Source: an uncultured Spartobacteria bacterium (GTDB taxonomy: Bacteria > Verrucomicrobiota > Verrucomicrobiia > Chthoniobacterales > Chthoniobacteraceae). Taken from it: DNA of 64,000 nt. The stretch lies in the NCBI GenBank assembly GCA_903919125.1, contig CAIXGS010000014.1, positions 1-64,000 of the forward strand, read 5' to 3'. Positions 400-22,029 of the stretch are shown here, piece by piece; within the stretch, counting starts at the first letter, position 1; each line of letters begins with the position of its first letter. Position numbers and translations under genes: made by a program. Below the pieces are notes generated by a model. That model did no database searches. It worked only from the letters and a program-made list of their open reading frames with translations, and was not told the origin of the DNA.

Positions 400-1548
400 A
401 TGACAAACACTGACAAACTGACTGAAAAAGCACTTCGTCCGATCCTTAACTTTGTTTTCACTCAAAACATTGAGGACACCCAAAATGACTCAGCCGTTCT
501 CGGGACGCCCGTGTGTATTTGGGGGCCGCACGGGATCGGTAAGACCGAGATGGTGGCTGACTTGGCCCGTGAGAACGGTTGGCATTTCGCCTATTGTGCG
601 CCGGGGCAGTTTGAAGAGATGGGCGATTTTCACGGCATGCCGGTCATTGAAGAGGGGCAGGATGGAATCAAGCGCACTCGTACCGCTCCGCCCGAATGGG
701 TCCCGACTCAGGAAGGTCCCGGGATTCTGCTGCTGGATGACATCAATCGAGCGGATGATCGAATCCTGCGCGGGATAATGCAGTTGCTCCAAAATCATCA
801 AATGGGGTCGTGGCGCTTACCGAGTCAGTGGCAGATTGTGGCGACCGCCAATCCAGACGGCGGCGGCTATTCGGTCACCTCGATGGATGAGGCGATGCTG
901 ACCCGAATGCTGCATTTCACGATGCAGTTTGATGTCAAGTCGTGGGCGGAATGGGCTACGCAAAAGGGCGTGGATTCCCGTGGGATCGCCTTCGTACTGG
1001 CGTATCCCGAGACTGTGAGTGGAAAACGAACCACGGCCCGCACGTTGACTCAGTTCTTCTCCAAAATCAGAAAAATACGGGATTTGAGAAAGGACATGCA
1101 CCTGGTACGACAGCTCGGCTCGGCCTGTCTTGATGCGGAAACGGTGCGCGCCTTCACAGCCTTCGTCGCCGATGATCTTGAATTGTTGCCAAGTCCAGAG
1201 GAGATCCTGACGGCGAACGAGGAACAACGAAAGCGTTGGAAAGCCAATGTGATTAAGGCGGGCACCGGCAAAGAAGGTGTCAAACGCGTGGATCGATTGT
1301 CGGCGATTGTGTTCCGCGTTTTGCTTTACCTCAACAAGGCAGAATTGGAGACCACGGACACGATGCTCACTAATTTCCTCGAGCTGTTTACGATGCCGGA
1401 AATTCCTCGAGATCTCAGTATTGGCCAAATTCCAGAACTGATGGGAAGCGCGAAGGGTGGGCTGAAGCGTTTCTTGGCTCGCCCGAAAGTGAAGGCGGCT
1501 TTGGGGAACCAGTTTGCGGATGACTTGCTCGCGATTCGGGCCGCTTAA
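400..1548 (+). CDS. MoxR-like AAA+ ATPase
   Basis: This is a 382-residue AAA+ ATPase of the AAA_5/MoxR type, which usually acts as a chaperone that remodels or loads metal into partner proteins together with a vWA-domain protein. From the ATG at 400, the Walker A motif GPHGIGKT is at residues 42-49 and the Walker B stretch ILLLDD at 109-114. It is followed by INRAD and by a sensor-like VATANPD motif, as is typical of the family. An upstream TTG at 307 is in frame, but the extra 31 residues are low in complexity and lack family features, so the ATG is preferred. The vWA gene begins 97 bp downstream on the same strand, which is the classic MoxR-vWA pairing. The substrate is unknown. A role in a conflict or stress system is inferred from the setting. 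Confidence 0.88.
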   Translation: MTNTDKLTEKALRPILNFVFTQNIEDTQNDSAVLGTPVCIWGPHGIGKTEMVADLARENGWHFAYCAPGQFEEMGDFHGMPVIEEGQDGIKRTRTAPPEWVPTQEGPGILLLDDINRADDRILRGIMQLLQNHQMGSWRLPSQWQIVATANPDGGGYSVTSMDEAMLTRMLHFTMQFDVKSWAEWATQKGVDSRGIAFVLAYPETVSGKRTTARTLTQFFSKIRKIRDLRKDMHLVRQLGSACLDAETVRAFTAFVADDLELLPSPEEILTANEEQRKRWKANVIKAGTGKEGVKRVDRLSAIVFRVLLYLNKAELETTDTMLTNFLELFTMPEIPRDLSIGQIPELMGSAKGGLKRFLARPKVKAALGNQFADDLLAIRAA

Positions 1549-1644
1549 GTCGGCGCAAAAGGAATAAAGCCGGGGTGGAGTCGAACTTCGAGGAGATCGG
1601 CTCTGCCCCATTGGCGTCTTTGTCACATCAACAGAAAGGGAAAC

Positions 1645-2970
1645 TTGATAAAATACACACTCGAACGATTGGAACAGGATATTGACAGCCTGCTGATGCA
1701 GGAGCCGTTTTATGGGCACATTTTTCAGGGGACGGGCCGAGTCATCACCCCCGCGTTGGACACTGCCGCCGTGGCGTGGAACGGACAAATGTACGTGTTG
1801 TACGTGAACCCGGAGTTTTTCGGTCAGCTAAAACTCCATGAGAAACTGGCGGTCCTTAAGCACGAGGTGCTGCACATCGTATTTCGCCATCTGACTCGTG
1901 GCAAAACGCGTGATCCCCACGTGTTCAACATTGCTGCAGACCTTGCGATCAACCAACTATGCGCGGGATTGCCCGCAGGTGCCTTGGACATCGCAGATTT
2001 CCAACCCCTCGGAATGGTTCGTAACGGAACTGCCGAGGAGTACTACGACCTCCTGCTAAAGAACCAGCCTCCTCGCGTCAAGAAACGCACTCCGAAGAAG
2101 GGAAAAGACGGCGACAAAGGCGACGGGAAGGATGGAGCTGGAAAGGGAGGGGAAGATAAGCAGGGAGAGGGTGATTCCAATTGGGAAGCCTTCTGGAAGT
2201 CTAAAAGTGGAAAAATCGGCAGCCATCAGAAGTGGGGTGAACAAATGGGGGTTCAGGGCGAAGAAGTGGTGGCGGATTGGAAGGCGGGGGATCTGGCGCT
2301 TCGAGCCCGAGATATGACGGAGGCGCGCCAAGCCGGTTCGTGGGGCAGGATGCCGGCCGCAATCCAATTAGAACTACAGAAGATTGACGAAGAGCGCCGT
2401 CCCCGCGTGGATTGGAAACAAATGTTGCGCACCTTTGTTTCCGGTTCCTCGCATACAAAACTTCGTACGACTATGAGCCGACCAAGCCGTCGGTTTGGAA
2501 CTCACCCGGGAACGCGAATTAAGCGAAACAAACGTTTGTTGGTGGCCGTGGATACGTCGGGTAGTACAGAGGGCTTACGAGAAATGTTTTTCGAAGAACT
2601 CCGGCACATTTGGAAGCAAGGGGTCGAGATTTGGGTCGTAGAATGTGACGCTGATGTGGGGGCACACTACCCGTTTAAAGGCGAAACCCCGAAGACGCTG
2701 ACGGGCGGAGGTGGAACGGCCTTCCAACCGGTGTTCGACTGGATGTTGTCAGGGCAAGCGCGAAGCGCTCCGCACGGAGGCCAGTTTGACGGCTGTGTGT
2801 ATTTCACAGACGGATATGGCCCTACTCCCACTCGGCCGCCGTTGTGTCGGATTATGTGGGTGTTGCCCCCATGGAAATACAATTGGGGAGGGGAGGAGGA
2901 GCCGAGTCAGAGCGTCCAGGAACGCTGGAAGAGGCTCACGCCCGGGACGGTCGTGGAGATGAGCGAGTAG
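1645..2970 (+). CDS. HExxH/vWA protein (DUF2201-like), partner of the MoxR ATPase
   Basis: This 441-residue protein has an N-terminal metallopeptidase-like domain with HEVLH at residues 73-77, a lysine/glycine-rich low-complexity linker at about 145-178, and a C-terminal von Willebrand A domain. The vWA metal site is intact: DTSGS at 303-307, the threonine of GGGGT at 358 and the aspartate of FTDG at 389. The architecture matches the DUF2201 family (putative metallopeptidase plus VWA-like), which is regularly paired with MoxR ATPases. The start is a TTG supported by AAAGGGA seven to eight bases upstream. It probably forms a chaperone module with the preceding ATPase. Whether the HExxH motif is catalytic cannot be told from sequence. 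Confidence 0.85.
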   Translation: MIKYTLERLEQDIDSLLMQEPFYGHIFQGTGRVITPALDTAAVAWNGQMYVLYVNPEFFGQLKLHEKLAVLKHEVLHIVFRHLTRGKTRDPHVFNIAADLAINQLCAGLPAGALDIADFQPLGMVRNGTAEEYYDLLLKNQPPRVKKRTPKKGKDGDKGDGKDGAGKGGEDKQGEGDSNWEAFWKSKSGKIGSHQKWGEQMGVQGEEVVADWKAGDLALRARDMTEARQAGSWGRMPAAIQLELQKIDEERRPRVDWKQMLRTFVSGSSHTKLRTTMSRPSRRFGTHPGTRIKRNKRLLVAVDTSGSTEGLREMFFEELRHIWKQGVEIWVVECDADVGAHYPFKGETPKTLTGGGGTAFQPVFDWMLSGQARSAPHGGQFDGCVYFTDGYGPTPTRPPLCRIMWVLPPWKYNWGGEEEPSQSVQERWKRLTPGTVVEMSE

Positions 2971-3038
2971 CTGAGAGGCGCTCGGTTACATGCGGATTTG
3001 CCCCAATCGGGGCGGTCAGATGGGACGTCCAAACCATG

Positions 3039-3138
3039 GACGTCCATAGCAGAAAAAATGTGGGGCCACTGTGGTGGCCCGTGGGGCGAAGCTTGGCGGC
3101 TTCGTCGTTGTTAAAGTCAAAAACAAAACACAGAAACT
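3039..3138 (+). promoter_or_regulatory. Structured 5' leader, copy 1
   Basis: These 100 bases directly precede the ATG at 3139 and are nearly repeated, at exactly the same distance, before the ATG at 4632. Two hairpins can be drawn: GGGCCAC/GTGGCCC around a TGTG loop and CGAAGC/GCTTCG around six bases. In the second copy the first stem changes on both arms (CGC/GCG), which keeps pairing, and the second stem is unchanged. No Shine-Dalgarno sequence is present; the end is A/C-rich. Confidence 0.5.
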
Positions 3139-4431
3139 ATGTATAAGTTCATTGACGAAAATGTATTAAAGCGAGTCGCGAAAAGAAATGGGTTTGACCC
3201 AGAGTCGCTGCTTCAGGTCATTAAACGTTTCGATGGGTTGAGGTCGGAGCTCAGAGAACAGGCAGTTTCAAGAGCGATCCAGACTGAAAATTGGGGGCAA
3301 CTTGACGCATTTATTTCCTTTGGATTTTGGTCGCTAACAACTGCCCTCCACCCTTTACCGGAACCTCTGATGAAAATTCAGGACGTCGCTGACACTTGGA
3401 GGCTAAATTCCCTAGATTTGCTGCTTGGAGGCGCGAGATGCGGCCGGGATAGCTTGGAAATGATTCATTGGGAGCGACAACCAGCCGAATGGAGGCTGCA
3501 ATGGCTGCCGTCGCTCAGAGCAGAGTGTGCGAAGTGGATGAATTCGGAAATCAATAATACGGAGGACACATTCGAGCGTTTGCCGATCTTATTGCGCAAT
3601 GATCCAGAGTTGCAGTCCACGAGGGTTGCGTTATGGGTTAGACGCCTCGATGCCAACCGCTCGTGGCGAGACTTAAAGCGCGTGCTTAAGCGTGTGCCAC
3701 AGGATGTTCGGGAGCATCCGGCTACTTACCCAAAATTGAGGTCTGCGGCGTTGGGAAGGCTTTGGGCAGTCATGCCGCATGGGTGGACAGATTTTATTGC
3801 GCTAGATCCTAGGCTGCAAAAGGATCCCGTTGTTTTGAAAAAGCGTAAAATGCAATGGCTGGCGTATTTTAAAGCCGGATCGACCAAGTGCTATGTGAGT
3901 CCCAAGGAGGAGTCGGTTCAGGATTTAGAATTGTATTATCTTCCTGGGGGCGTCGATGCCGAAACGGGCGCACCTGATGCTGAATCACTCGCAAATCCCG
4001 AAGTGTACTCAGCTTGGCTAAACGCTTGGTTGAGAGTTTATCGAGCTTACACCGGGCAACCGCCCGTGCCGCCACCGCGCGAATTGCGTGAGAATTCGGA
4101 CGTATACTCGGCTTGGAAACGGGCTTGGGTGAGTTTCTGCGGATTGCCCTGCGACGGCCTTCCCACAATGCCACCGAGCGAACTGCTTGAGAATTCAGAG
4201 GTGTACTCAGCTTGGCGAAAGTCGTGGGTGAGATTTTACCGAGTGCACACTTGGCAACCGCCGGTGCTGCCACCGAGCGAACTGCGCGAGAATTCGGAGG
4301 TGTACTCAGCTTGGCGAAAGTCGTGGGTGAGATTTTACCGAGTCCACCCTTATCAACCGCCGGTGCTGCCACCGAGCGAACTGCGCGAGACAATCCGCCT
4401 GATGCGCTTTTGGGAGATGAGAACGTGGTAG
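3139..4431 (+). CDS. Tryptophan-rich tandem-repeat protein, shortened copy
   Basis: I do not recognise a named family. The 430-residue product is basic and rich in Trp, Arg and Leu. Its first 65 residues match the next gene closely (FIDxNxLxRVAxRNGFDPESL, then AIQTENWGQL). From 3985 to 4380 it has four 33-residue units of the form L-x-E-N-S-E-V-Y-S-A-W-x-x-x-W followed by QPPVLPPSE, probably a pair of helices each. The last two units are almost identical in DNA. A fifth unit begins at 4381 but runs out of frame: the +1 frame reads PPDALLGDENVVGAWRALDR, which fits the repeat, so the reading frame seems to have been broken by a deletion inside the array. The general design resembles DUF4116-type alpha-helical repeats, but this was not tested. 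The tandem position after the MoxR-vWA pair suggests a shared system. Confidence 0.75.
   Translation: MYKFIDENVLKRVAKRNGFDPESLLQVIKRFDGLRSELREQAVSRAIQTENWGQLDAFISFGFWSLTTALHPLPEPLMKIQDVADTWRLNSLDLLLGGARCGRDSLEMIHWERQPAEWRLQWLPSLRAECAKWMNSEINNTEDTFERLPILLRNDPELQSTRVALWVRRLDANRSWRDLKRVLKRVPQDVREHPATYPKLRSAALGRLWAVMPHGWTDFIALDPRLQKDPVVLKKRKMQWLAYFKAGSTKCYVSPKEESVQDLELYYLPGGVDAETGAPDAESLANPEVYSAWLNAWLRVYRAYTGQPPVPPPRELRENSDVYSAWKRAWVSFCGLPCDGLPTMPPSELLENSEVYSAWRKSWVRFYRVHTWQPPVLPPSELRENSEVYSAWRKSWVRFYRVHPYQPPVLPPSELRETIRLMRFWEMRTW
3985..4389 (+). repeat. 99-bp coding tandem repeats
   Basis: Four units start at 3985, 4084, 4183 and 4282, each 99 bp (33 codons). Units three and four differ at only a few positions, which points to recent unequal exchange. 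A partial fifth unit starts at 4381 and changes frame. The array lies inside the tryptophan-rich protein gene. Confidence 0.85.
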
Positions 4432-4531
4432 GAGCCTGGCGAGCTTTGGATAGATAATGAGGTGGCGCTAGGAGCCAGGCGTAGGGTCGCCCATTAGCGA
4501 AGTGCACCCAAAAAAGGACGTTCGAGCGGTG

Positions 4532-4631
4532 AACGTCCACAGCAGAAAAAATGTGGGGCCGCTGTGAGCGCCCGAGGGGCGAAGCTTGTCGGCTTCGTCG
4601 TTGTTGAAGTCAAAAACAGAACACAAAATCT
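4532..4631 (+). promoter_or_regulatory. Structured 5' leader, copy 2
   Basis: This is the second copy of the 100-base leader, ending immediately before the ATG at 4632. It shares GCAGAAAAAATGTGGGGCC with copy 1, keeps the CGAAGC/GCTTCG hairpin exactly and keeps the first hairpin by paired changes. It suggests that gene and leader were duplicated together and that the RNA structure is under selection. Confidence 0.5.
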
Positions 4632-7043
4632 ATGTCTAAATTCATTGATAGAAATCTACTAGAACGTGTCGCAACAAGAAATGGGTTTGACCCAGAATCT
4701 CTGCTTCAGGTGATTCAGCGCTTTGAAAGCATGAGAGCATCCCTAAGAAAACAAGCGATCTTAAGAGCGATCCAGACGGAAAATTGGGGCCAGCTTGAGG
4801 CATTTATTTGTCTGAGTTCGTGGGTCTCGCTCAGAGCGATTCAAACGCTACCGCCTCCTCTGGCAGCGATTCCAGAAGTTGCTGAAATTTGGAAAAACGA
4901 ATCATTGGGTTGGTTGCTAGCTGGGGTGAGAGTCGGGAGCGATCGCTGTAAAAAAATCCCGCTTGAGTGGCAGTCTTCTGAAGCCAAACAACAATGGTTA
5001 CCGGGCTGGAAAAACGCTTGGAGGAAATGGGTTGAATACGAAATCGGGCAGGGGAGGGACACCCTTCATCGGATACCAAAGTCTTTGGGTGAGGAGTTGG
5101 AATTCCAGTCCCAAAGAATTTCGCTTTGGTGCCATCGCTGCATCGGGCGTTCGCACTCGGAATTACGAAGTATGCCTGAGGATGTGCGCCAAAATCCTCA
5201 CGGCTACGCTGCACTGCGAACTGGCGTGGGCCGATTATTCAAGAGCGGAGACCAAACGAAGTTTCTATGTCTTCGAGATTTAGCGAATCTAGAACCCCGA
5301 TTGCAAGCCGACTTGTTTGTTTTGGAGTCACGGAAAGCTGCATGGCTGAAATATTTAATTGCAAGACATACGAATCGGCCGACAACTCCAGAGGCTGATT
5401 TACTTCAAGACTCAGAAGTGCATTCCGCCTGGTTGCGAGGTTGGATAACGTATCTGGAATCAGGTGCCGCACATTATCACTTTTTGTATATTCCAACGGA
5501 ACTCGCGAATGAGAGCTGCATCTTGGACGCTCGCCGGACTGGAGCATTGAAGTGGCTTCGGACGGATCCTTCTCGAGCGGGAACTCCCGAGAAGGATTTA
5601 CTTCAGGACTCCGAAGTGTATGCCGCCTGGGTTCAAGCTTGGATAAAGAACCTGAAAACTAATTTCAGCGTGAACATCCCAACGGAACTCGCGAATGAGA
5701 GCCGCATCTTGGACGCTCGCCGTGCCGGATTGTTGAATTGGATTGCGACGGAACATCCAACGATTGCGGAAGTCGGGGGGCTGAAGCTAGATTTTCTCAG
5801 GACGGATGACCTAGTGCGGCAAGAGTGGGAAGAAGGATTCATCACACGCCACAGAGGAAAGCCGGTCGCGGATTGTGAGGAACTGCTCAAGGAATGGCTT
5901 CTCGCTCAGATGTATTTCGGTAGAAGAGCGGTTCCTGTAACTCGACTCTGGGGCGCTCTTGCAGAGAGAGTCGCTCTGGATCTCAATGTTGCCCCAGTAG
6001 AATGTCGTGGAGATTCAGAATGCCTGCGTTCTTGGTTGATGGGATGGATAGGGTACGTCGCCTCGGCCGATATGGACTCGATTCGAACTCTCTCATCCAT
6101 CCCGCCGACCCTACGGGAACACGAGCGCGTGAAGGCGGCGATAAGGCATCGCTGGCTCCATTACGTCAACCGCTCAAATGCGAAAGCGTTGGATCGCTTT
6201 GCAGAAATTCCCTGCGAATTAGCCGATCATCCGAGTTTCGCGGATCTTAAAAACAGCCTCTGGAATAACGCAGTTTTATCGGGAGAGCGTACCCTATCGG
6301 CGCTGCCCGAAAACGTTACTCCCTCTCCGGAACTAAAGCAGCAGTTTCAGGAATGGAGTCAGATCCCGATCGAGAGGCGATCGGATCCGGATTTTCGGAC
6401 CGCTTGGAAGCGTCTTTTTGCACTCTCCAGGCATTATTGCGCCGCTTTGGATCATCTCGCTCAGTTTCCTGCAGCTGACCGAAAGCTGGTCAGCTTTTGG
6501 CGAAACGCAACGGATCCTCGAAAACGAGACATACACGACGCGCTTCGGACGCTTCGCAGATTTCCGTGGGCCATTGATGATTTGTCAAAGGAGTCCCTCG
6601 CTCATCCACTGATCAGAGAGTCCGCCGAGGAGGGGATGTTGGAGTTAATTCAGAAGCATCGAAGCTACGAGGAGGTGATGCCGGAGTCGCTCGCGCAAAC
6701 GAATCGGATTCAGAGTTTCCTCGAAATGCGGAATGCGGAGGCTGTGAGTAAGCAGATGTCGGAGGGAACCGACGAGAAAGCGAGAGTTCAAAGGGAGTTG
6801 AGACGCTGGGAACGCGAGATTAGGAAAGACGGGGTTAAGTATGCCGTGATGCCTATCCGTTTGAGGGGGGAACCGCGTTTGCTTGCTGCGCTTCGGGAGA
6901 CCATCGGCCCGTTGGTCCGTAAAAATCCGGGGATATGGATGCAACTGCCGGCAATTGTCCGAGAGGACGAATGCCTGCAGCGTGTATTCCGAATAGCAAC
7001 GCGGGGGCCGCTTGCTGGGATGGAAGCGAAGAATGCGGCGTAA
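4632..7043 (+). CDS. Tryptophan-rich tandem-repeat protein, long copy
   Basis: This 803-residue protein is a paralogue of the gene before it, sharing the N-terminal FDPESLLQVI and AIQTENWGQL segments and the helix-pair repeat style. Motifs such as LLQDSEVxxAW and IPTELANESxILDARR recur between residues 250 and 380, and looser W-x(n)-LP-x-L units continue to the C-terminus. I see no catalytic motif, signal peptide or membrane segment, so a scaffold, adaptor or recognition role is more likely than an enzyme. The ATG follows the duplicated structured leader. Context is the MoxR-vWA pair upstream on the same strand. Function is unknown. Divergence of its repeats from those of the shorter copy suggests the two recognise different partners, which is an inference. 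Confidence 0.78.
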   Translation: MSKFIDRNLLERVATRNGFDPESLLQVIQRFESMRASLRKQAILRAIQTENWGQLEAFICLSSWVSLRAIQTLPPPLAAIPEVAEIWKNESLGWLLAGVRVGSDRCKKIPLEWQSSEAKQQWLPGWKNAWRKWVEYEIGQGRDTLHRIPKSLGEELEFQSQRISLWCHRCIGRSHSELRSMPEDVRQNPHGYAALRTGVGRLFKSGDQTKFLCLRDLANLEPRLQADLFVLESRKAAWLKYLIARHTNRPTTPEADLLQDSEVHSAWLRGWITYLESGAAHYHFLYIPTELANESCILDARRTGALKWLRTDPSRAGTPEKDLLQDSEVYAAWVQAWIKNLKTNFSVNIPTELANESRILDARRAGLLNWIATEHPTIAEVGGLKLDFLRTDDLVRQEWEEGFITRHRGKPVADCEELLKEWLLAQMYFGRRAVPVTRLWGALAERVALDLNVAPVECRGDSECLRSWLMGWIGYVASADMDSIRTLSSIPPTLREHERVKAAIRHRWLHYVNRSNAKALDRFAEIPCELADHPSFADLKNSLWNNAVLSGERTLSALPENVTPSPELKQQFQEWSQIPIERRSDPDFRTAWKRLFALSRHYCAALDHLAQFPAADRKLVSFWRNATDPRKRDIHDALRTLRRFPWAIDDLSKESLAHPLIRESAEEGMLELIQKHRSYEEVMPESLAQTNRIQSFLEMRNAEAVSKQMSEGTDEKARVQRELRRWEREIRKDGVKYAVMPIRLRGEPRLLAALRETIGPLVRKNPGIWMQLPAIVREDECLQRVFRIATRGPLAGMEAKNAA

Positions 7044-7124: not shown

Positions 7125-7871
7125 TTAAGCGCTGATAATGCGGTCTTTCGCGAATATGACTGGATCAATGACATGCAGGCAGCCGTCCTCATCAATGAGC
7201 ACGTTACCCTCATGCAGGTCCTCAACGGCCAATAATTCAGAGTGGTAGTCGTCAAACCCTTTTCGTGCGTACCCACGTTCGCGCATGAAAGGCTCGACCA
7301 CACTTCTTATGGCACCAGACACCGCGTGCACGTCGGGTTGTGTGAACAGTGGGCACAACCCGGCTTCCGATTCTACAAACCCCTCCAACCGCAGGGGCGC
7401 TTCGGGGAAGTAGAGGTTGTGAGCCAGCATACGCTCGAAAAACTGCCGCCAGGATAAATGCATCACATCGATCCGGTTTCGCTTCCACACCAAACCCGTG
7501 AGCTCATCGTAGATAATGTCGTTTTCGGCACCACCCATCTCCCCTTGCGCCTTCCACTGGAGTTCGAAGTGCGCGCCATCGTGCAGCAATTCCTCCGTGA
7601 TGGCGTGTTGACGCAAAGCGGCCTCTTCCGCGGCCCGAACCGCAGCATTTACCTGTGTCGTGACTTTTGAATTTGGGCGAACTGCTCTTGGAAGGCTTTC
7701 AATGACCTTGGTGGCCGCGAGGTATTTTTCACCGCCAGCCGCCTGGATTGCGCGATCATACGCGCTTCCTTCGCTCTCGGTTTTAGGTGACTTTGGTTCA
7801 GGCTCGCGATGGGCTGAGCGTCGGGATTTGGTTCGGTGTGTGACATCTTTGGAATTTGGTTGTTGGTCCAT
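7125..7871 (-). CDS. Polyvalent-protein-type kinase domain protein
   Basis: This 248-residue protein has a charged, probably disordered N-terminus (about 1-35), an alpha-helical middle and a C-terminal kinase-like domain. The catalytic segment DLHEGNVLIDEDG lies at residues 218-230, with Asp218 and Asn223 in catalytic-loop positions, followed by VIDP with Asp236 in the metal-binding position. This matches the putative polyvalent protein kinase family known from polyvalent proteins of phages and plasmids, where such domains are thought to modify host or rival proteins. A glycine-rich loop is not obvious. The gene heads away from the tandem-repeat genes, and its start lies five bases from the end of the Cys/His miniprotein gene, so the two are probably cotranscribed with the GIY-YIG gene. 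Confidence 0.65.
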   Translation of the reverse strand: MDQQPNSKDVTHRTKSRRSAHREPEPKSPKTESEGSAYDRAIQAAGGEKYLAATKVIESLPRAVRPNSKVTTQVNAAVRAAEEAALRQHAITEELLHDGAHFELQWKAQGEMGGAENDIIYDELTGLVWKRNRIDVMHLSWRQFFERMLAHNLYFPEAPLRLEGFVESEAGLCPLFTQPDVHAVSGAIRSVVEPFMRERGYARKGFDDYHSELLAVEDLHEGNVLIDEDGCLHVIDPVIFAKDRIISA

Positions 7872-7876
7872 AGTGA

Positions 7877-8128
7877 CTATTTCTCGTGCTTGCCGTGTGG
7901 GCTATAGATGCAACCGCTCCCAGTAGACGTGGAGCCGCACCAGATGCAACGGCTTCCCTGGCCGTGGCGATGTTTGCGGGTCGGGCTGTGAATACAACCG
8001 CTCCCGTGCGAGCTTGAACCGCAAAACTCGCAGTGTCCTTCGTCTGATAGATGTTCATGTTTCCCGTGCGGGCTGTGAATGCATCCCGAACCGAACGAAG
8101 TGGAATTACAAAAACGGCATTTGCTCAT
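7877..8128 (-). CDS. Three-repeat Cys/His miniprotein (probable zinc binder)
   Basis: This 83-residue protein is almost entirely three tandem units of 25-29 residues with the pattern C-x2-C-(G/N)-S-(S/T)-S-x-G-S-G-C-I-(H/Y)-S-P-x2-K-H. Each unit therefore offers three cysteines and one or more histidines, enough for a small zinc site. Similar single units occur in small uncharacterised bacterial proteins, from memory; I know of no assigned function. It sits between the polyvalent kinase gene and the GIY-YIG gene on the same strand. A role as nucleic-acid or protein-binding zinc ribbon is an inference. Confidence 0.7.
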   Translation of the reverse strand: MSKCRFCNSTSFGSGCIHSPHGKHEHLSDEGHCEFCGSSSHGSGCIHSPTRKHRHGQGSRCIWCGSTSTGSGCIYSPHGKHEK

Positions 8129-8183
8129 AGATGATTTTGATTTCCTGAGTTGATGATGTGTTTAAAAAAATGAGACCGCCCCT

Positions 8184-8603
8184 TTATTGCTCGTTCTCGT
8201 GATTTGCGGCCGGGGCTTGGACGAAATTGTTCCACTCCGGTTGGTGGCGAGTGATTAACGCCTGCTCAATCGCCTCCACGGCGTTAAGCTCGAGTCCTTC
8301 GTGATGAAGAACCAGGTTGGTTTCTTTGGCGTACACTTCGACCGACATCCCGCTTTTTAGAGAGGTTTGAATTCCGTCCCTCACTGTCTTCATCACGTCG
8401 TTTCTGTGATAATTGAGGGGACGACTATATCCTTGAATGGTCTTTCCAAGGTATTTGCATATTCCGTCGCAAAAAATCCCGTAAACCAGAGGCTTTCTCA
8501 TGGTAACAGTGACTGAAGATGAGCGGTTGACCGTTCCATCAGGCTGGAGGTGGTACGCGCCAATTTTCTGAAACCCGTGCTGTGTTTGGAATGTAGTGAT
8601 CAT
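8184..8603 (-). CDS. GIY-YIG nuclease-like protein
   Basis: This 139-residue protein (from the ATG at 8603; an in-frame ATG at 8624 is possible) has a GIY-YIG-type core. YGIF lies at residues 41-44, YLG at 51-53 and an arginine at 61, with a late glutamate (Glu113) in the segment EAIEQALITRHQPEWN, which is typical of the metal-binding part of the fold. GIY-YIG enzymes cut DNA in homing, repair, restriction and phage defence. Divergence of the first motif (YGIF for GIY) makes activity uncertain. It is the probable first gene of the reverse-strand set that includes the Cys/His miniprotein and the kinase. Confidence 0.6.
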   Translation of the reverse strand: MITTFQTQHGFQKIGAYHLQPDGTVNRSSSVTVTMRKPLVYGIFCDGICKYLGKTIQGYSRPLNYHRNDVMKTVRDGIQTSLKSGMSVEVYAKETNLVLHHEGLELNAVEAIEQALITRHQPEWNNFVQAPAANHENEQ

Positions 8604-8638
8604 TGTTTGTATTGCTCCCTCCATTATTGCTCACGGGG

Positions 8639-8657
8639 CCCTACCTTTCAGGGAGGG
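8639..8657. promoter_or_regulatory. Interrupted dyad of the CCCTCCCT/AGGTAGGG type
   Basis: CCCTACCT and AGGGAGGG are separated by TTC, in the space between two divergent genes (starts at 8603 and 8767). A related dyad occurs at 18891-18910 and a related half at 11439. An operator for a regional regulator is an inference. Confidence 0.35.
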
Positions 8658-8766
8658 GCGTCTGCTTTTTGTTCGTGGCCCTTGGGGGCGGTTTCCTAAC
8701 TAATACGCATCAGCCGTGTTAAGTTTCAATTTGCCTCGAGCTAATTTTTTGATAAGCAAACACATT

Positions 8767-9261
8767 ATGCCTGAGCCCGAAATTCATATTTCTGACCGTT
8801 GCACTGACAATCGCCACCCTAAATTGGTGTTTGAAAATCATGCCCGCGGTTGGAGGAAGTTAATTTTGTGTAAATGGGAATGCCCCGCAATTGAAGGTGA
8901 TCGGCCGCGTAATTTGTGTCTGATCACGACCGAAAATAATAATCAGCAAGATGCTGGCTGGCTCTCATTTACGAATCAAGGAGTGCAATACATGCAGGCT
9001 ATTGGCGTGAAATTTCCTACCGAAAGCTGGACGCCGTGTCCGGTGTACGGGAAGGGGCATCGCGAGCATGGAAACACGATCGGACCAGGGACTGCATATA
9101 ATATTGGCTTCCGGTTTGATACGCCGGAGAGAGCCCTGGAGTGGCTTTTGGATCTGTTTCATCTGAGGGGAAAGACTGTTTGCAAGTGCGTTCACAGCGA
9201 TCCATGGCCGTCAAACTTGGATGCAATTTTGGATTCTAAACGCGTGGGTCAATGCTCTTGA
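8767..9261 (+). CDS. Hypothetical protein
   Basis: This 164-residue protein from the ATG at 8767 belongs to no family that I recognise. It is rich in Cys and Trp (LCKWEC, KCVHSDPW), lacks a signal peptide or membrane segment, and has a central stretch, GNTIGPGTAYNIGF, that may be a structured loop. The start codon follows AAGCAAACACATT without a Shine-Dalgarno sequence, like several other accessory genes here. It is divergent from the GIY-YIG gene and may share its control region. Confidence 0.5.
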   Translation: MPEPEIHISDRCTDNRHPKLVFENHARGWRKLILCKWECPAIEGDRPRNLCLITTENNNQQDAGWLSFTNQGVQYMQAIGVKFPTESWTPCPVYGKGHREHGNTIGPGTAYNIGFRFDTPERALEWLLDLFHLRGKTVCKCVHSDPWPSNLDAILDSKRVGQCS

Positions 9262-9549
9262 GGCCTTGCGCTTTGTTGAGGCGGGAGCCAATGAATTAGT
9301 GCGGCCACTAGCGGAGTATTCCTGCCTGCTGGGGCATCGCCCCGCCTCCAGAGCGCATAATGAAGCGGGTTCAACTTGTCCTTCTCACTGGCGTCTTGAT
9401 AGCGGCTTGCCACGTCTTTGACCATTTTTGCAGTCAAAGCGAATGGCTTCTCATCCTCTGTAATGATGGAAATCTGAGTTTCCGTTTTCTGAACAAAGAA
9501 TACAGACTTTCGGCAAAGGGTATCAATCGTCTTTCATCAGAAAATGCCG
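9262..9549. other. Gap without a supported gene
   Basis: The stretch lies between two converging genes. A 62-codon frame on the reverse strand (9249-9437) contains the protein-like phrase KLNPLHYALWRRG, which may be a gene remnant, but I can neither identify it nor support it as a gene. Confidence 0.4.
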
Positions 9550-10404
9550 CTATTCCATAAATGCCCGCACCGTGTCCAGATGAAGCTCGGCGACTTCCTC
9601 GAGACTCAATGGGTCGGTGTAGCCTCCAGCGGGGGCAAAAATCACTGGCACCTTTTTTTCGGCGCACCATTTGGCAACCATCCGATCCCGCTTGGCCAGC
9701 ATAAGAGCGGTTATGCCCTCGATTCCGCCCGCGCTTTCGTGCGGGTCCATCCCTGCGTAGTAGATGAGAAAATCGACCGGCTCCATTCGTTTTAGGGCCC
9801 GACGAACGGCAGCAAGATAGCGCGACGCATCGGTCACTTCGGCCCGGTGATGTCTACGCGGTTCCGAGGGAATCCAGTCGTCGAGATCCGACACGCTGAC
9901 GTCTGCGAGATGCACGTTCGGGTTTGCTCCCAAAATGGCAAATGTGCCGCCGCCGAAATGAGCGTCTAAATCTAGTATACCCACGGTGCGGACGTGTTCC
10001 AGCGCGACCAGGGCGGCCAAAGCGATGCCGTTGATTGTGCAAAGGGCAAATCCCCTGTTGCGCTTGGCGTGATGCTGGCCGCTCGATAAGCAGCCCGCCT
10101 TTCCAGAACGCAACGCTTCCAAAACCGCGTCTCGCATTGCCCCAGTGGAGAAAAGAATGCTATCCAGCAATTCCGGAGACCAAGGGCCAGCCGCCAGTCG
10201 CCCAATGGAGCCTGAAAGGACGCTCTGAATATAGTCGGGATCGTGAATGCGTAGCAACTCATCGTGGGTCACGGGCGCTGGGGCAACGAGCTCAACTCCG
10301 GGGACGCGGCCCTCTTGGAGGAAGCGGGCGATCACACGCGACTTGCTCACGGTTTCAAGCTCCGAGTCTATCGCAAACTCTTTGCAGTAAAATATCTTCA
10401 TCAA
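9550..10404 (-). CDS. Histone deacetylase / acetylpolyamine amidohydrolase family protein
   Basis: This 284-residue protein is a member of the arginase-fold deacetylase superfamily, which removes acetyl groups from lysine or polyamines using a metal ion. The active-site elements are present: the His pair at 111-112 (SGQHHA), the metal ligands D-x-H at 147-149 (DLDAHFG), a third ligand Asp220 in YYAGMDPHE, and the GGY motif with Tyr262. The N-terminal segment THDELLRIHDPDYI is also typical. Bacterial members act in acetoin use, polyamine deacetylation and secondary metabolism. Here the gene follows the vWA gene on the same strand, with a hairpin between them, so it may be expressed separately. 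The substrate cannot be told. Confidence 0.85.
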   Translation of the reverse strand: MMKIFYCKEFAIDSELETVSKSRVIARFLQEGRVPGVELVAPAPVTHDELLRIHDPDYIQSVLSGSIGRLAAGPWSPELLDSILFSTGAMRDAVLEALRSGKAGCLSSGQHHAKRNRGFALCTINGIALAALVALEHVRTVGILDLDAHFGGGTFAILGANPNVHLADVSVSDLDDWIPSEPRRHHRAEVTDASRYLAAVRRALKRMEPVDFLIYYAGMDPHESAGGIEGITALMLAKRDRMVAKWCAEKKVPVIFAPAGGYTDPLSLEEVAELHLDTVRAFME

Positions 10405-10467
10405 AAATATCCCAAAAATATAGGCGAAGGAGTTGCCTCACCTAGGCATTCCAAACTCAATGACCGA

Positions 10468-10499
10468 CGGCCCCCAGAGCCTGCACCGGCTGGGGGCCG
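10468..10499 (-). terminator. Strong hairpin after the vWA gene
   Basis: A perfect 10-bp stem, CGGCCCCCAG/CTGGGGGCCG, encloses a 12-base loop and starts 18 bases after the vWA stop codon. There is no T-run on the reverse strand, so it may be a factor-dependent terminator or processing site. Confidence 0.5.
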
Positions 10500-10516
10500 A
10501 CGACCATTTCTTCCGC

Positions 10517-11194
10517 CTACAATTCCGTTCTTCTCTTGCGGGCCTCGGTTTCGTCGGCGACGAGCTCACTCATGGAGGCTGCGGCATCGTCCGTCTCGAC
10601 GCCGATTGAACTCATCCGCATTGCTGTCACCTTACGGCTCATGGCTTTTTTGGCGGAGGAAATTCCAACGGCCGAAAATTCCATATTGCTGCTGTTTCGC
10701 GTATCCATCCTCATGTTGGAGGCTGTCGCGATGGCGTCCTGGTTGGCTCCCAAGAAAATGAATTCCCAAGAGTAAACTTTTTGTTGGTGTTGAATGGAGC
10801 TCGAGACGTCTGTCCAGGTGAAATGACGGGACGAGTTTTCCTCGCCGTCGGTGAACACGACCACGATCACTTTACCCGGGCGCGCCTCATCGGGAGTTGC
10901 TGCGAGCTTGCGCCCCAGAGCGTTGATTGTCTCCCCAATGGCGTCGAGAAGGGCGGTTGCTCCCTCGGGAATGTACGTCTGATTGTTGAGTTCAGGCGCC
11001 TCGGAAATTGGGGTAGCGGTTTCTGGAATCGTGCAGTCAGTGGAAAATAAAACCAGCGAGAGGTTGGCCTGCCCGGGTAACGTCTTTTGCTGTTGCAGGA
11101 AGTCGTTATAGCCAGCAATAGCTGCCTGCCGGTGTCTGCCCATTGATCCGGAGCGGTCCAAAATGTAGGCGATTTCTGTCAGTGATTTATTCAT
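10517..11194 (-). CDS. vWA-domain protein
   Basis: This 225-residue protein consists mainly of one von Willebrand A domain. The metal site is complete: DRSGS (Asp13, Ser15, Ser17), Thr80 in GATAL and Asp116 in FTDGEEN. It resembles stand-alone cytosolic vWA proteins of the TerY type that organise protein complexes in stress and conflict systems. The last 45 residues are charged and probably disordered. It is divergent from the NADAR genes, with 523 bp between them that include the long direct repeat. A regulatory or scaffold role is expected; partners are unknown. Confidence 0.85.
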   Translation of the reverse strand: MNKSLTEIAYILDRSGSMGRHRQAAIAGYNDFLQQQKTLPGQANLSLVLFSTDCTIPETATPISEAPELNNQTYIPEGATALLDAIGETINALGRKLAATPDEARPGKVIVVVFTDGEENSSRHFTWTDVSSSIQHQQKVYSWEFIFLGANQDAIATASNMRMDTRNSSNMEFSAVGISSAKKAMSRKVTAMRMSSIGVETDDAAASMSELVADETEARKRRTEL

Positions 11195-11438
11195 GGTCGG
11201 TGGGTTGTGGGTAGGTTGTGAATGGGTCCACAGCCATTATTGCACACTCTTCCGACGCAACTGGGGCAACTCACCATATCCGCATGAGTGCATCCGAAAA
11301 GTCGGCGCCTTGATCGGGCCCAGTGTCACCGCACCGTGGAACCCTCATTCGTCTGCCGCTCGACGTTGCGTCCAAGACCGCGAATTTGCCCTAAGCACTG
11401 GCCACGCTACTACGCATTTAGGGGCTTTTTATGGCAGT

Positions 11439-11460
11439 CCCTCCCCTCAAAAGGAGCCCC
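11439..11460. promoter_or_regulatory. CCCTCCCCTCAAAAGG motif
   Basis: CCCTCCCCT-CAAA-AGGAG lies in the divergent region between the vWA gene and the NADAR genes, at the left edge of long direct repeat copy 2. The same left half occurs inverted at 17426-17438 and nearly intact at 18891-18910. An operator function is inferred only. Confidence 0.35.
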
Positions 11461-11603
11461 CTTCAGCCTATAATGTAAGGCTCAACACATGAGCTTTGTG
11501 GGTGGGGAGGTGTTGTAATGATTTGGAAAAAGGGGAGTGAAAATAAGGGGGTGTCTTATGACATCTCACGTTTTTTCGCGCCTTGATTTAGAGGTTTTAA
11601 GGT
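11446..11603. repeat. Long direct repeat, copy 2
   Basis: This copy matches 1-159 (see there) and ends about 115 bp before the ATG of the first NADAR gene. The remaining part of the 11195-11717 gap holds GGGGAGGTG tandem repeats (about 11610-11640) and no supported gene. Confidence 0.75.
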
Positions 11604-11717
11604 GTGGAGGAGAGGTGGGGAGGTGGGGAGGTGGGGAGGTAAAGATCCAGAGAGTGAGCCCTGAGGGATCAAAAGAGTCAGTTAAGTTGAAACCAAAGAA
11701 TGAAAGGAAACAATAGT

Positions 11718-12251
11718 ATGAAAAATAGACAATTGCATAATGTTCATAGGTTTGTAAACGTGATTGCCTTCACGAAAGTGGGGTTGCCTTATGGCTGGCT
11801 TGGGAACATGGCGGCCTTTCCGCTCGTGCATGACGGGCAAAAGTATCTGACCTCCGAGGCCTTATTTCAGTGTCTGCGTTATGAGGGATTTCCAGAGGTT
11901 CAGAAGCAGATCCGTGACTGCCCTTCGCCGATGGGAGCCAAAATGCAGGCAAAGAAGTACAAGCACCTGATTTCCTCTACCGTGGAAATGATGGGAGAGG
12001 AGGACATCCAACGTATGCTCCTGTGTTTGCGCTTGAAGTTGGTGACTTATCGAAGTTTGCAGGCGGCGCTCATCGCTACGGGAGAGAAGGTGATCATCGA
12101 GGACGTCGGCGCAAGAGCGTCAAAGTCTGGAATGTTTTGGGGAGCCAAGTGGGACGATTCCCTGGGCCAGTGGGTAGGACAAAACGTGCTTGGCTCACTT
12201 TGGATGCAAATCCGTGAAGAGCTAGCGGAGCAAAACCAAGTGGCAGCCTAA
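11718..12251 (+). CDS. NADAR-family protein 1
   Basis: This 177-residue protein has the NADAR/YbiA-like (DUF1768) pattern: a Y-x-W-L-G-N-M start, the FPLVHDGxxYLTSEALFQCLRY segment and a C-terminal FWGAKWD..WVGQNVLGSLWMQIRE block. NADAR proteins bind or hydrolyse NAD-derived and ADP-ribosylated compounds; some reverse guanine ADP-ribosylation of DNA in DarT-type systems, and YbiA acts in riboflavin biosynthesis damage control. The ATG at 11718 is preferred over the one at 11700 because GAAAGGA precedes it at good spacing. The second NADAR gene follows after 94 bp on the same strand, suggesting an operon. The substrate is unknown. Confidence 0.8.
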   Translation: MKNRQLHNVHRFVNVIAFTKVGLPYGWLGNMAAFPLVHDGQKYLTSEALFQCLRYEGFPEVQKQIRDCPSPMGAKMQAKKYKHLISSTVEMMGEEDIQRMLLCLRLKLVTYRSLQAALIATGEKVIIEDVGARASKSGMFWGAKWDDSLGQWVGQNVLGSLWMQIREELAEQNQVAA

Positions 12252-12345
12252 TCTGCCTAGGATTTAGTGTGCATTTGAAGGGGTAGGGTAGGGGAGGAAG
12301 TGGATTTGGTGTTATTAAAAATTAAAAAACAAATAGTATATATTT

Positions 12346-12993
12346 ATGATATCAAAAGTACAGAATGCCGAACTTGATCTGGAAATGTTATTGCGCGAAG
12401 AAGCGGTTCTTAAACAGGATGTGGCATGGTTCGCCACTAATAAAAATCAAAGATGGAGTCTTCACAATTTCGCCGCTGGTTCCATTGAATGGAAAGGTGA
12501 AATATGGAATTCGTCTGAAACCCTTTATCAAGCTTGTAAATATGGAACGCACGTGGAATGCGTTCCCGCTGGCAAAGAGGAGGATCAAGGATATGAGCCA
12601 AATGTCCGAAAGCGTATATTTCAACAGAACGGTGGTAGGCCTGCAAAGTGGACGCAGAAGTGTGCCCAAAAAGCCGGCTTTGTCAGAGAAGACTGGCTGC
12701 GTGACGGGGTATTGATGTGTATTCACGCAATGAATTGGGCGATCGAGATGAAATTCTATTCATCAATGAATCAGGAATCCCAATTCGCAAATGATGTAAT
12801 GAACCCCACCTGGGCGCATTTGCCTTTCTATGAATTTTCCAGTAAGGACGCCTATTGGGGAACCATTCAAAGACCCGATGGAGTCTGGCGAGGCAAAAAT
12901 GTAGTGGGCAAGCTGATCGACGGCGTCAGATCAAGAGCTGACGCTATTATGGAGGGACGTTTTAGTTACCCGGAAGGATTACTGTTGCCGTGA
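12346..12993 (+). CDS. NADAR-family protein 2 (divergent)
   Basis: This 215-residue protein shares the NADAR layout with its upstream neighbour: SLHNFAAG..W.G..W.SSETLYQACKYG near residue 45, and a C-terminal AYWGTIQRPDGVWRGKNVVGKLIDGVR. The family-typical glutamate/glutamine pair (SSETLYQ) is kept. Between these blocks it carries a different insert (residues 70-110) with KEEDQGYEPNVRKRIF, so it is not a simple duplicate. The upstream 40 bases are A/T-rich and lack a Shine-Dalgarno sequence. Two unlike NADAR proteins side by side suggest two substrates or a heteromer, which is an inference. Confidence 0.7.
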   Translation: MISKVQNAELDLEMLLREEAVLKQDVAWFATNKNQRWSLHNFAAGSIEWKGEIWNSSETLYQACKYGTHVECVPAGKEEDQGYEPNVRKRIFQQNGGRPAKWTQKCAQKAGFVREDWLRDGVLMCIHAMNWAIEMKFYSSMNQESQFANDVMNPTWAHLPFYEFSSKDAYWGTIQRPDGVWRGKNVVGKLIDGVRSRADAIMEGRFSYPEGLLLP

Positions 12994-13076
12994 TAGGAAA
13001 CCATTAAACCTTGATGTGAACTTTAAGCGCGACTGACACCAAACCTTCATTCTAAAACCTTACAGATTTTAATGAG

Positions 13077-13232
13077 ATGAATAAGAAATTTTTAAGATGC
13101 CTGAGTAACCCTTTTGAAGTCCATTACGGACCTGAAAATCCCGTAAACTGGCGGATGATGGAATTTTACTCGCAAAACCAAAATCCAGAGCGTTTTTCAG
13201 AAGTGAAATTAGCGCATGAAGATATTGGCTAG
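13077..13232 (+). CDS. Small hypothetical protein
   Basis: A 51-codon frame starts at ATG 13077 in the gap between NADAR 2 and the WYL regulator. It has no homology that I recognise. The predicted product contains SNPFEVHYGPENPVNWRMM and is acidic near its end. It is kept because it fills an otherwise empty same-strand gap, but it could be chance. Confidence 0.3.
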   Translation: MNKKFLRCLSNPFEVHYGPENPVNWRMMEFYSQNQNPERFSEVKLAHEDIG

Positions 13233-13313
13233 CCACATGGCGCAATATTCGGCAAGCTGAAGGTCGCCCCGTTCTGTTAAAATCCAGAGAAAACCCTCTA
13301 CTTTCCTCACCCC

Positions 13314-14333
13314 ATGTCGAGTTACGCGATGCTTGCGAATGCGCTCAAAGTGCATGATTTGATTTTCAATTACAGGCGGGGTAAACTGACGAAGCCTGAT
13401 ATTGCGAAGAAACTCGAAATCTCTGAAAAGCAGGTCACCAAGGCCATCGATTTTCTGAAAGTGATGGGGTATCCGGCCCAGTATGACGAGGCCAACGAGC
13501 GGTGGCATTATGATTGGTCGCCGGAGAAACCGCTTACCATTCTCTCGAATCTTACCGATAAACTTCTTCCTCGTCTTAAGGAGTTTCCCGAATCTGAGTT
13601 TGCGGTTGTTTTAATGCTTCAACATGGGTTGCAGATGCTAAAAGGAACCCGTTTATATGGAGAGGCCAAGCAGTTTATCGATTTGCTGAACGACGATAAG
13701 TTAAGCATGCTCAGGGCTCAAGTAAGCAGCATGTTTACTTATCAAAGGCGGCCCGCACAGTTAATCGATAGTGAATGTTTCGCGGACGTAGCATGCGCTA
13801 TTTATGAGCGACAACAAATCACGTTCATGTACCAGAAGCCCGAGGATAGCAAACCTGCGGCGCGCACCGTTGACCCGCACCACCTCGTTTACAGCGATGA
13901 GATATGGCAATTAATGGGATGGGACCAAATGCGGAACGCCGTACGCACCTTCTCACTCACTCGGATGCAACGGGTGAGGCGGACAGGTGTCCAGTGTAAC
14001 CCAATGCGGATGGGGCGAGCCGTTATCGCCGAACAGTTGGAGCATGCTTTTAAGATGATTGGCAAAGGAGGCAAGGAGCCTCCGCACAAAGTCCGACTGC
14101 GCTTTGATCCTTATGCGTCCGCGATGGTTCGCGAAAAGCTCTGGCATACCTCCCAGGAGATTACCCCGTATCCGGACGGTGGGAGCGAGGTGAGGTTTGA
14201 GGTCGCCTCTCTGACGGAAATGGAACGCTGGGTGATGAGCTGGTGCAACCACTGTGAAGTGCTCGAACCGCCGGAGTTAGTCGAACGGGTACGCCAGAGT
14301 GCGCTTGCTGTTCTGGCAAAATATCAGGCTTAA
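13314..14333 (+). CDS. WYL-domain transcriptional regulator
   Basis: This 339-residue protein has an N-terminal winged helix (about 5-65, KLTKPDIAKKLEISEKQVTKAIDFL) and a central WYL-type ligand-binding domain (about 160-230; AIYERQQITFMYQ, TVDPHHLVYSDEIWQLMGW, FSLTRMQRVRRTG), followed by a WCX-like C-terminal part. WYL regulators bind nucleotides or nucleic acid and often control defence loci such as CBASS, BREX and CRISPR. It follows the NADAR genes on the same strand. A role in controlling the accessory cluster is inferred; its operator may be the repeated CCCTCCC motif, which is untested. Confidence 0.85.
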   Translation: MSSYAMLANALKVHDLIFNYRRGKLTKPDIAKKLEISEKQVTKAIDFLKVMGYPAQYDEANERWHYDWSPEKPLTILSNLTDKLLPRLKEFPESEFAVVLMLQHGLQMLKGTRLYGEAKQFIDLLNDDKLSMLRAQVSSMFTYQRRPAQLIDSECFADVACAIYERQQITFMYQKPEDSKPAARTVDPHHLVYSDEIWQLMGWDQMRNAVRTFSLTRMQRVRRTGVQCNPMRMGRAVIAEQLEHAFKMIGKGGKEPPHKVRLRFDPYASAMVREKLWHTSQEITPYPDGGSEVRFEVASLTEMERWVMSWCNHCEVLEPPELVERVRQSALAVLAKYQA

Positions 14334-14390
14334 CTTTCTGACAACTTGAGAGGTGACTCGCTGCGCAAGTTGGCTGCGCGAGGTGCCCGT

Positions 14391-15479: not shown

Positions 15480-16140
15480 TGGGTGGCTCTTTCAGTCCAA
15501 GGGCAATCCGGCGTTTCGGTGGCTGGAGATTGAAGCGATACCTTTGAAATGAGCTGATGGGCAAGCAAACTCTGTTAATGACCCAGTCGCCTTTACTTTG
15601 AAAATCACAAAACCCTCCTCAAACCATTGGACCGATGGAATAACGTCAGGTCGCCGAGACACCGGTGCTGTCGACGAAGCTTCCGATCATTTATGGGCCG
15701 TCCGCGGCGGGATTTTGCCCAGTCCTCAGGCGACTCCGTTCTGTGTGCTATACTAGTCGCGAGCTTGATCGCCTCGCAGTCTGCCTGGGAGCAATGAGTA
15801 GAATTTACAAGGCGCCTGCGTAACCGAGTCCCTTGTGCTTCCAGAATGGTCGTTTTACTTAGGGCGGTGGCATTCACTTGCTAATGTATCAGCTGAAGAG
15901 AGCGAGCATTGAATGAGAACGGCATTTCCTTTGCGTTAAGCAGGATCGCTCTCGCGTTAAAAACGTAGTCTCGGAAACCGAGAGGAGTAATCCCCATATC
16001 AGGCGTGTGAGGGAGAAGATCAATTGGGTGATCCTTTAGCGAAGAACCGCTAGGAAATGGCTACTCAATGAGCAGTAATGAGTCCCTAGAAGAAATCGAA
16101 TCATAAAAATTTATACAAAAAACAACGAACATCCACAAAT
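15480..16140. other. Gap without a supported gene
   Basis: No convincing coding frame, RNA or terminator is visible in these 661 bases between dinB and the next forward gene. A 90-codon reverse frame (15605-15877) looks like chance. The last 60 bases are A-rich and end in an A/C-rich leader before the ATG at 16141. Confidence 0.5.
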
Positions 16141-16788: not shown

Positions 16789-16807
16789 ACACACAAACCA
16801 AACTCAT

Positions 16808-17170: not shown

Positions 17171-17268
17171 AACAGAGCTGGCGTTGACATCTGAGTTGCT
17201 GTGACGACTGGCATTAACGCGAAAAATAGGGAATTGCTTTTCACCCGACGGCACGATGCTTTTCACTG

Positions 17269-22017: not shown

Positions 22018-22029
22018 CATTTAACAGAA

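What the first reader, a model, noticed from the sequence alone, without database searches (positions are those of the whole stretch)
400..7043. MoxR-vWA pair with two tandem Trp-rich repeat proteins: candidate uncharacterised system
A MoxR AAA+ ATPase and HExxH/vWA partner are followed on the same strand by two large paralogous proteins of helical-pair repeats with no enzyme motif. MoxR-vWA pairs are known cores of several conflict and stress systems; I do not know of one with these repeat proteins as third components. They would be the natural clients or sensors of the chaperone pair.
Basis: partly seen in the sequence, partly recalled or inferred. Interest (0 to 1): 0.7.

Follow-up and report, generated by a model that had tools for sequence, protein, structure and literature searches.

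The report
MoxR chaperone operon with solenoid proteins
A bacterial operon pairs an ATP-driven chaperone and its partner with fast-evolving spring-shaped repeat proteins; relatives of the same chaperone pair in many bacterial phyla stand beside other repeat proteins, mostly leucine-rich ones, which points to a little-noticed recognition machine that may serve in conflict with invaders.

Summary
At 400-1548 lies a MoxR AAA+ ATPase, at 1645-2970 a DUF2201 protein (HExxH zincin-like domain plus vWA-like domain with intact MIDAS), then two paralogous Trp-rich helical-repeat proteins (3139-4431, 4632-7043) without any Pfam, NCBIfam or PADLOC hit. A congener (G007, Chth-196) has the same operon, with a third repeat protein upstream and unrelated flanks, so the module is real. 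The repeat family (33-residue unit, predicted alpha-solenoid) is confined to one genus: 8 of 12 congeners, 0 of 201 other genomes of the order. Of 17 family genes, 12 lie away from MoxR, but the window's subfamily is 4 of 4 beside it. New here: this MoxR subfamily (about 50% identity) is scattered over many phyla, and in 41 of 63 informative loci its gene run holds a large repeat protein, mostly leucine-rich; LRR-pattern genes: adjacent 17/149, distal 1/311. Some more distant MoxR-DUF2201 pairs sit beside LRV/HEAT or other Trp-rich repeats. The window thus looks like a variant of a broader MoxR-DUF2201-solenoid arrangement that I did not find described. Most likely mechanism: solenoids recognise a target, the MoxR-vWA(-peptidase) pair remodels or cleaves. 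A conflict role is inferred, not shown.

The parts
400..1548 (+). MoxR-family AAA+ ATPase (382 aa); Walker A GPHGIGKT 523-546, Walker B LLLDD about 727-741
   Evidence: AAA_5 E 8.5e-8; Walker, sensor and arginine residues 90-100% conserved in 75 relatives; 86% identical orthologue in L048
1645..2970 (+). vWA co-chaperone with N-terminal zincin-like domain (DUF2201_N + DUF2201, 441 aa, TTG start); HExxH 1861-1875, MIDAS DTSGS 2551-2565
   Evidence: Pfam E 1.6e-29 and 4.9e-8; H73, H77, H82, D99, D303, T304, S305, S307 100%, E74 93% in 55 relatives
3021..3138 (+). structured 5' leader of the first repeat gene (three predicted hairpins)
   Evidence: 85% identical to the second leader, no other good copy in the genome; MFE -47.4, z -5.0
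3139..4431 (+). W-rich helical-repeat protein 1 (P0003, 430 aa); C-terminal repeats in a 99-bp tandem DNA array at 4003-4390; probable frameshift near 4390
   Evidence: ORF, repeat units, TRF, homologues in L048
4514..4631 (+). structured 5' leader of the second repeat gene
   Evidence: MFE -40.7, z -2.4; the third hairpin, near the start codon, is also seen ahead of a repeat gene in L048 with base changes that keep pairing
4632..7043 (+). W-rich helical-repeat protein 2 (P0004, 803 aa); residues 437-795 predicted as a regular alpha-solenoid; conserved C-terminal cap with GP..R.NP and QRV..I.TR motifs
   Evidence: pLDDT 84.8 for residues 437-803

Best explanation
An accessory operon encodes an ATP-driven remodelling machine with exchangeable solenoid recognition subunits. 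Shown by sequence: an intact MoxR ATPase, a vWA partner with intact MIDAS and a conserved HExxH zincin-like domain, and two paralogous alpha-solenoid repeat proteins kept as one module in two species. Shown by comparison: relatives of the same MoxR-vWA pair across phyla stand next to large solenoid proteins of other kinds (LRR in most; LRV/HEAT or other Trp-rich repeats beside some more distant MoxR-DUF2201 pairs). Inferred: the solenoids bind a target (protein or nucleoprotein), the vWA domain captures an acidic or extended peptide of solenoid or target, and the MoxR hexamer pulls on it, releasing a remodelled complex or feeding the zincin domain for cleavage. Inferred with less confidence: it acts in biological conflict, as the rapid change of the repeat subunit, patchy distribution and neighbouring TIR, DUF4062-AAA and RT genes of relatives suggest.
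For: Module kept with different flanks in G007. Chaperone parts evolve slowly (86%, 69%) and repeat parts fast (39-49%). 41 of 63 loci outside the genus have a C/D/E repeat protein in the same-strand run; LRR-pattern proteins adjacent 17/149 versus distal 1/311, Fisher p 3e-8; Pfam LRR in up to 30/33 of cluster C and 17/29 of D/E, while no LRR family reaches two of 40 control genes. LRV/HEAT next to L063, L065, L060; Trp-rich 22-residue repeats next to L183 and L206. Catalytic and MIDAS residues almost invariant. TIR (L096, L101, L108) and DUF4062-AAA (L096) beside the verrucomicrobial relatives; RT and a helicase/MZB pair beside L061. Patchy: MoxR subfamily in 1 of 289 phylum genomes, yet about 50% identical in Bacteroidota, Myxococcota, Proteobacteria, cyanobacterial and actinobacterial records.
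Against: No experiment; no defence-library hit for any of the four proteins. 22 of 63 informative loci show no repeat neighbour by these criteria, and only about 5 of some 27 distant MoxR-DUF2201 pairs looked at do. 12 of 17 W-repeat genes lie away from MoxR. The window's own neighbours include no TIR, STAND or RT gene.
Confidence: 0.5

Rival explanations
1. The repeat proteins are not sensors but clients: scaffold proteins that the MoxR-vWA pair folds, loads or matures, as NorQD, CbbQO and RavA-ViaA do for their targets.
For: That is the established work of characterised MoxR-vWA pairs (PMC7159879 section 8; abstracts of PMC9976466 and PMC13036017). Several paralogous clients behind one pair is natural.
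Against: Clients of known pairs are enzymes or metal sites; here several unrelated solenoid types fill the same place, which looks like a recognition slot.
Confidence: 0.25
2. The pair and the W-repeat genes are neighbours by chance within a shuffled accessory pool of this genus, without joint function.
For: The repeat family occurs mostly elsewhere (12 of 17 genes); kinase, NADAR and radical-SAM genes of the same region are shuffled among congeners.
Against: Four of four subfamily members directly follow the pair on the same strand in two species with different flanks; repeat proteins of other kinds recur at the same place in other phyla.
Confidence: 0.12
3. The operon is part of a wider NAD/ADP-ribose or DNA-damage island with the NADAR, HDAC-like, vWA and radical-SAM genes of 7-19 kb.
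For: Two NADAR genes, a deacetylase fold and a second vWA protein at 9.5-13 kb; WGR, BRCT and DNA-ligase genes near relatives.
Against: Those genes are on mixed strands and do not follow the operon in G007, while they occur without it in G001.
Confidence: 0.13

Closest known systems
MoxR-vWA ternary conflict systems (VMAP, iSTAND, FtsH, beta-propeller), Kaur et al. 2020, PMC7159879
   Same: MoxR ATPase plus vWA protein plus a third, variable component; superstructure-forming repeats are frequent there
   Different: The vWA partner here is DUF2201 with an HExxH domain; the third component is a free-standing solenoid; P-loop GPHGIGKT, not GXXXTAKS; no VMAP, STAND or FtsH domain found. DUF2201 does not occur in the paper's text and LRR only once, not among its named third components in the passages read
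NorQ-NorD, CbbQ-CbbO, RavA-ViaA, CoxD-CoxE chaperone pairs
   Same: MoxR hexamer plus MIDAS-bearing vWA adaptor
   Different: Their vWA partners carry no zincin domain that I know of (own knowledge), and their clients are enzymes, not solenoids
MoxR and DUF2201 proteins of phages
   Same: Same two domain families (phage hits at 24-33% identity)
   Different: Distant sequence; no relation to the repeat family
DUF4116 and LRV/HEAT-type alpha-solenoids
   Same: Short helical repeats; all-alpha solenoid
   Different: Only sub-threshold signals: DUF4116 E 0.29 on one homologue, a DUF4116 viral model at E 0.15

Membership tests
MoxR-vWA chaperone pairs | MoxR-clade AAA+ with intact Walker A/B next to a vWA protein | tested here: met
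   pair on the same strand in the window and in 48 of 78 other loci
MoxR-vWA chaperone pairs | vWA domain with MIDAS residues | tested here: met
   DTSGS and T388/D389 98-100% conserved in 55 sequences
VMAP / iSTAND / FtsH ternary systems | VMAP-C, inactive STAND or FtsH domain in the third component | tested here: not met
   no Pfam match at E <= 1 in either repeat protein
Beta-propeller ternary system | beta-propeller C-terminal to vWA; P-loop variant GXXXTAKS often | tested here: not met
   vWA protein ends with the vWA-like domain, no propeller; P-loop GPHGIGKT; bpMoxR only E 0.084, below cut-off
MoxR-DUF2201-LRR arrangement (described here) | MoxR of the QFEEMGD subfamily | tested here: met
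MoxR-DUF2201-LRR arrangement (described here) | LRR third component | tested here: not met
   no LRR in P0003/P0004; a different, alpha-helical repeat stands there
Metallopeptidase activity of DUF2201_N | HExxH plus third ligand, active enzyme | tested here: inconclusive
   motif and H82/D99 conserved; activity not testable by sequence
Anti-phage defence system | match to known defence models or shown protection | tested here: inconclusive
   no PADLOC match; protection not testable here
DUF4116 or other solved alpha-solenoid family | significant profile or fold match | tested here: inconclusive
   Foldseek best E 0.26, VIA best Z 5.2 over 106 residues at 5.1 A for residues 437-803

The most novel reading that the evidence does not exclude
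A fifth, cross-phylum class of MoxR-vWA ternary system, defined by a zincin-vWA (DUF2201) adaptor and a swappable solenoid recognition subunit (LRR, LRV/HEAT, or Trp-rich helical repeats), in which the window's genus replaced the LRR by its own repeat family; an ATP-driven recognise-and-cleave immune machine.
Probability: 0.4. Interest if true: 0.75.

Novelty: new variant of a known kind. Interest (0 to 1): 0.52.

Why it matters
If the solenoid is the recognition part, this is a bacterial analogue of pairing LRR or other solenoid sensors with an ATPase switch, built on a chaperone family whose clients are mostly unknown. The LRR versions lie in cultured bacteria (for example Cellulophaga baltica DSM 24729, Chitinophaga, Flammeovirga, Saprospira), so the idea can be tested directly. 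The swap of repeat type at a fixed chaperone pair would also be a clean case of modular exchange in a multi-protein machine.

Tried and rejected
Sequence look-ups that found nothing for the repeat family: genome contigs and viral contigs with P0004 or A1, plasmids, PDB sequences, Pfam/NCBIfam/PADLOC. A plasmid or phage origin of the MoxR was looked for and not supported (one viral contig, L174, holds a relative). My self-alignment repeat detector by blastp returned zero for every protein, known repeats included, and was discarded; the counts that remain rest on the LRR pattern, sequence clusters and Pfam. The first fold of P0004 as a whole was poor in residues 59-235, so that part has no tested fold. 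No Rfam family in 1-24000. DUF4116 kinship considered and left open.

Full report
Observation. The window is the start of contig C14 of a 4.34 Mb genome in 87 contigs. Its first 7 kb hold four genes on one strand. P0001 (400-1548) is a MoxR-type AAA+ ATPase (AAA_5, E 8.5e-8). P0002 (1645-2970) matches DUF2201_N, a putative metallopeptidase domain, and DUF2201, a vWA-like domain. P0003 (3139-4431) and P0004 (4632-7043) have no Pfam, NCBIfam or PADLOC match. All stated coordinates are right. MoxR starts at ATG 400, as its orthologue shows; the vWA gene starts with TTG.

The repeat proteins. A profile built from their own units has the consensus LREDPEVLEAWRRGWLAALRSSPESARKIP, with copies about 32-33 residues apart. 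In P0003 the last four copies are also a DNA tandem array of 99 bp (4003-4390), so the array has grown or been homogenised recently; after about 4390 the repeat goes on in another frame (LLGDENVVGAWRALDR), which points to a frameshift that trimmed the protein (read from the sequence). AlphaFold2 gives P0004 residues 437-803 at mean pLDDT 84.8 as a row of units of a long helix and two short ones; no PDB fold stands out (best Foldseek E 0.26; best VIA Z 5.2 over 106 residues at 5.1 A). The N-terminal third was not modelled with confidence.

Who has them. Within 57 relatives the family is in 8 of the 12 genomes of the genus and nowhere else; a profile of ten members finds nothing in 201 further genomes of the order or in 387 of the phylum. 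Counting gene by gene there are 17 family genes: a syntenic or lone long form in most congeners (L049, L051-L056), forms with other N-termini in accessory regions (L050, L057, L093), and the five genes that flank MoxR in the window and in G007. But the subfamily with the window's N-terminus has four members, and all four directly follow a MoxR-vWA pair. In G007 (public record QQND01000040, isolate Chth-196) the order is repeat (1037 aa), MoxR, vWA, repeat, repeat; the window's flanking genes have no counterpart there. The stretch ahead of the window's MoxR resembles that between the 1037-aa gene and MoxR in G007, so an upstream repeat gene may be hidden beyond the contig end; the N-terminal part of that gene was not found elsewhere in the window's genome. 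Identity falls from 86% (MoxR) and 69% (vWA) to 39-49% (repeat proteins).

The chaperone pair elsewhere. A profile of the MoxR found 201 relatives in named genomes; the best 80, at about 46-57% identity apart from the orthologue, come from Bacteroidota, Verrucomicrobiota, Myxococcota, Proteobacteria, a cyanobacterium and an actinobacterium by their record titles. In the phylum of the window it is rare: 1 of 289 genomes. In 75 MoxR sequences Walker A and B and the sensor region are nearly invariant; in 55 vWA sequences HExxH, a third histidine, an aspartate 22 residues on, and the MIDAS residues are 93-100% conserved. So the partner is a likely active, or at least strictly kept, zincin-vWA protein.

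What stands next to it. Neighbours were clustered. Besides MoxR and vWA the three largest recurrent clusters (C, D, E) are large proteins. C is LRR (LRR_14 in 30 of 33 members). D and E together give LRR_4 or LRR_EndoS in 17 of 29; most E members have an LRR-like unit (GLTSLSDAAAEALSKHKG) that Pfam does not name. In 63 informative loci outside the window's genus, 41 have such a protein in the same-strand run. By a plain LRR pattern, 17 of 149 adjacent genes against 1 of 311 other genes of the same loci are positive (Fisher p 3e-8); among 40 control genes no LRR family reaches two members (only the first 25 of 114 families are listed, so single weak hits cannot be excluded). Two congeners of the window carry a MoxR about 55% identical: G004 with vWA, an LRR-like WGR protein, a TIR-WGR protein and a TrkA-RyR protein, and G006 on a short contig. 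So within one genus the same kind of chaperone pair occurs with two different repeat partners.

More distant MoxR-DUF2201 pairs (about 30% identity) show the same trend in part. L063 and L065 have LRV or HEAT-type proteins on the same strand, L060 on the other. L183 has three tandem paralogues of a 22-residue Trp-rich repeat (QPQFADQCDWSKLNGxDWSxLLQE) directly behind the pair, and L206 one related protein directly beside it; this repeat occurs in 17 of 195 genomes sampled. L061 and L064 instead have a reverse transcriptase, L061 with a helicase and an MZB protein close by. In 20 further loci of the phylum most neighbours are of other kinds, so the trend is strong only in the window's own MoxR subfamily.

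The leaders. Both repeat genes are preceded by the same leader of about 120 bases, 85% identical, although the proteins are only 37% identical; it has no other good copy in nine genomes. It folds into three hairpins (z -5.0 and -2.4). The hairpin next to the start codon occurs again ahead of a repeat gene in G007 with paired base changes (CGAAGC/GCTTCG to CGATGC/GCATCG). With so few sequences this is a lead, not proof of an RNA element.

Mechanism. Known MoxR-vWA pairs capture a peptide of a partner by the vWA domain and use ATP to change or release it (PMC7159879 section 8). I propose that the solenoid recognises a target, and that the pair remodels the solenoid-target complex or feeds it to the zincin domain. 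Intact parts and the recurrent place of solenoids are shown; binding, remodelling and cleavage are inferred. A conflict role is suggested by fast change of the solenoid, patchy distribution, and TIR, DUF4062-AAA and RT genes near relatives; it is not shown, and the client reading (solenoids matured by the chaperone) remains a serious rival.

Literature. The library held no paper joining MoxR with LRR third components or with DUF2201. Kaur et al. 2020 describe four MoxR-vWA ternary systems; the operon fails the defining third-component features of each as far as tested. Subscription papers were not searched, so novelty is relative to that library.

Limits. MAG data, contig ends, mechanical ORF calling; homologous loci are not independent counts; only the 80 best MoxR relatives were examined.

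Noticed in passing
window 44763-53953: Hma-type defence genes (HmaB 1639 bits, HmaC 1401 bits in PADLOC), with an AAA ATPase and a Schlafen/AlbA_2-Fic-like protein between or beside them.
   Followed up: partly
window 54105-57625: AAA_25 ATPase and a phage-type tyrosine integrase next to the Hma genes, suggesting that the defence genes ride on an integrated element.
   Followed up: partly
window 11700-12993: Two NADAR genes in tandem, near a histone-deacetylase-like gene and a second vWA protein on the other strand.
   Followed up: no
window 7125-22452 with L050 and L057: Accessory genes (polyvalent-protein kinase, NADAR, WYL regulator, radical SAM protein, others) shared at 53-92% identity with two congeners in different orders; W-repeat proteins of other subfamilies lie in the same pools.
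   Followed up: partly
window 3021-3138 and 4514-4631: Highly structured 5' leader shared by the two repeat genes, more conserved than the proteins.
   Followed up: partly
L061:5391-11561 and L064:8322-14227: Reverse transcriptase protein (993 and 912 aa), a 305-319 aa protein, MoxR and DUF2201 vWA in one same-strand run; in L061 a helicase and an MZB protein, possibly DISARM-like, follow.
   Followed up: partly
L183:4302-10639: Three tandem paralogues of a near-perfect 22-residue Trp-rich repeat directly behind a MoxR-DUF2201 pair, with an FGE-sulfatase-domain protein on the other side.
   Followed up: partly
L206:6848-9504, L106, L148: A DNA-ligase-like protein and a protein of about 200 aa recur near MoxR-DUF2201 pairs in distant phyla.
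   Followed up: no
L174 (IMG/VR contig) 9001-10080: A viral-collection contig carries the MoxR-vWA pair with a 1367-aa LRR-cluster protein, in the same order as a bacterial MAG (L110); virus or misassigned host DNA not decided.
   Followed up: no
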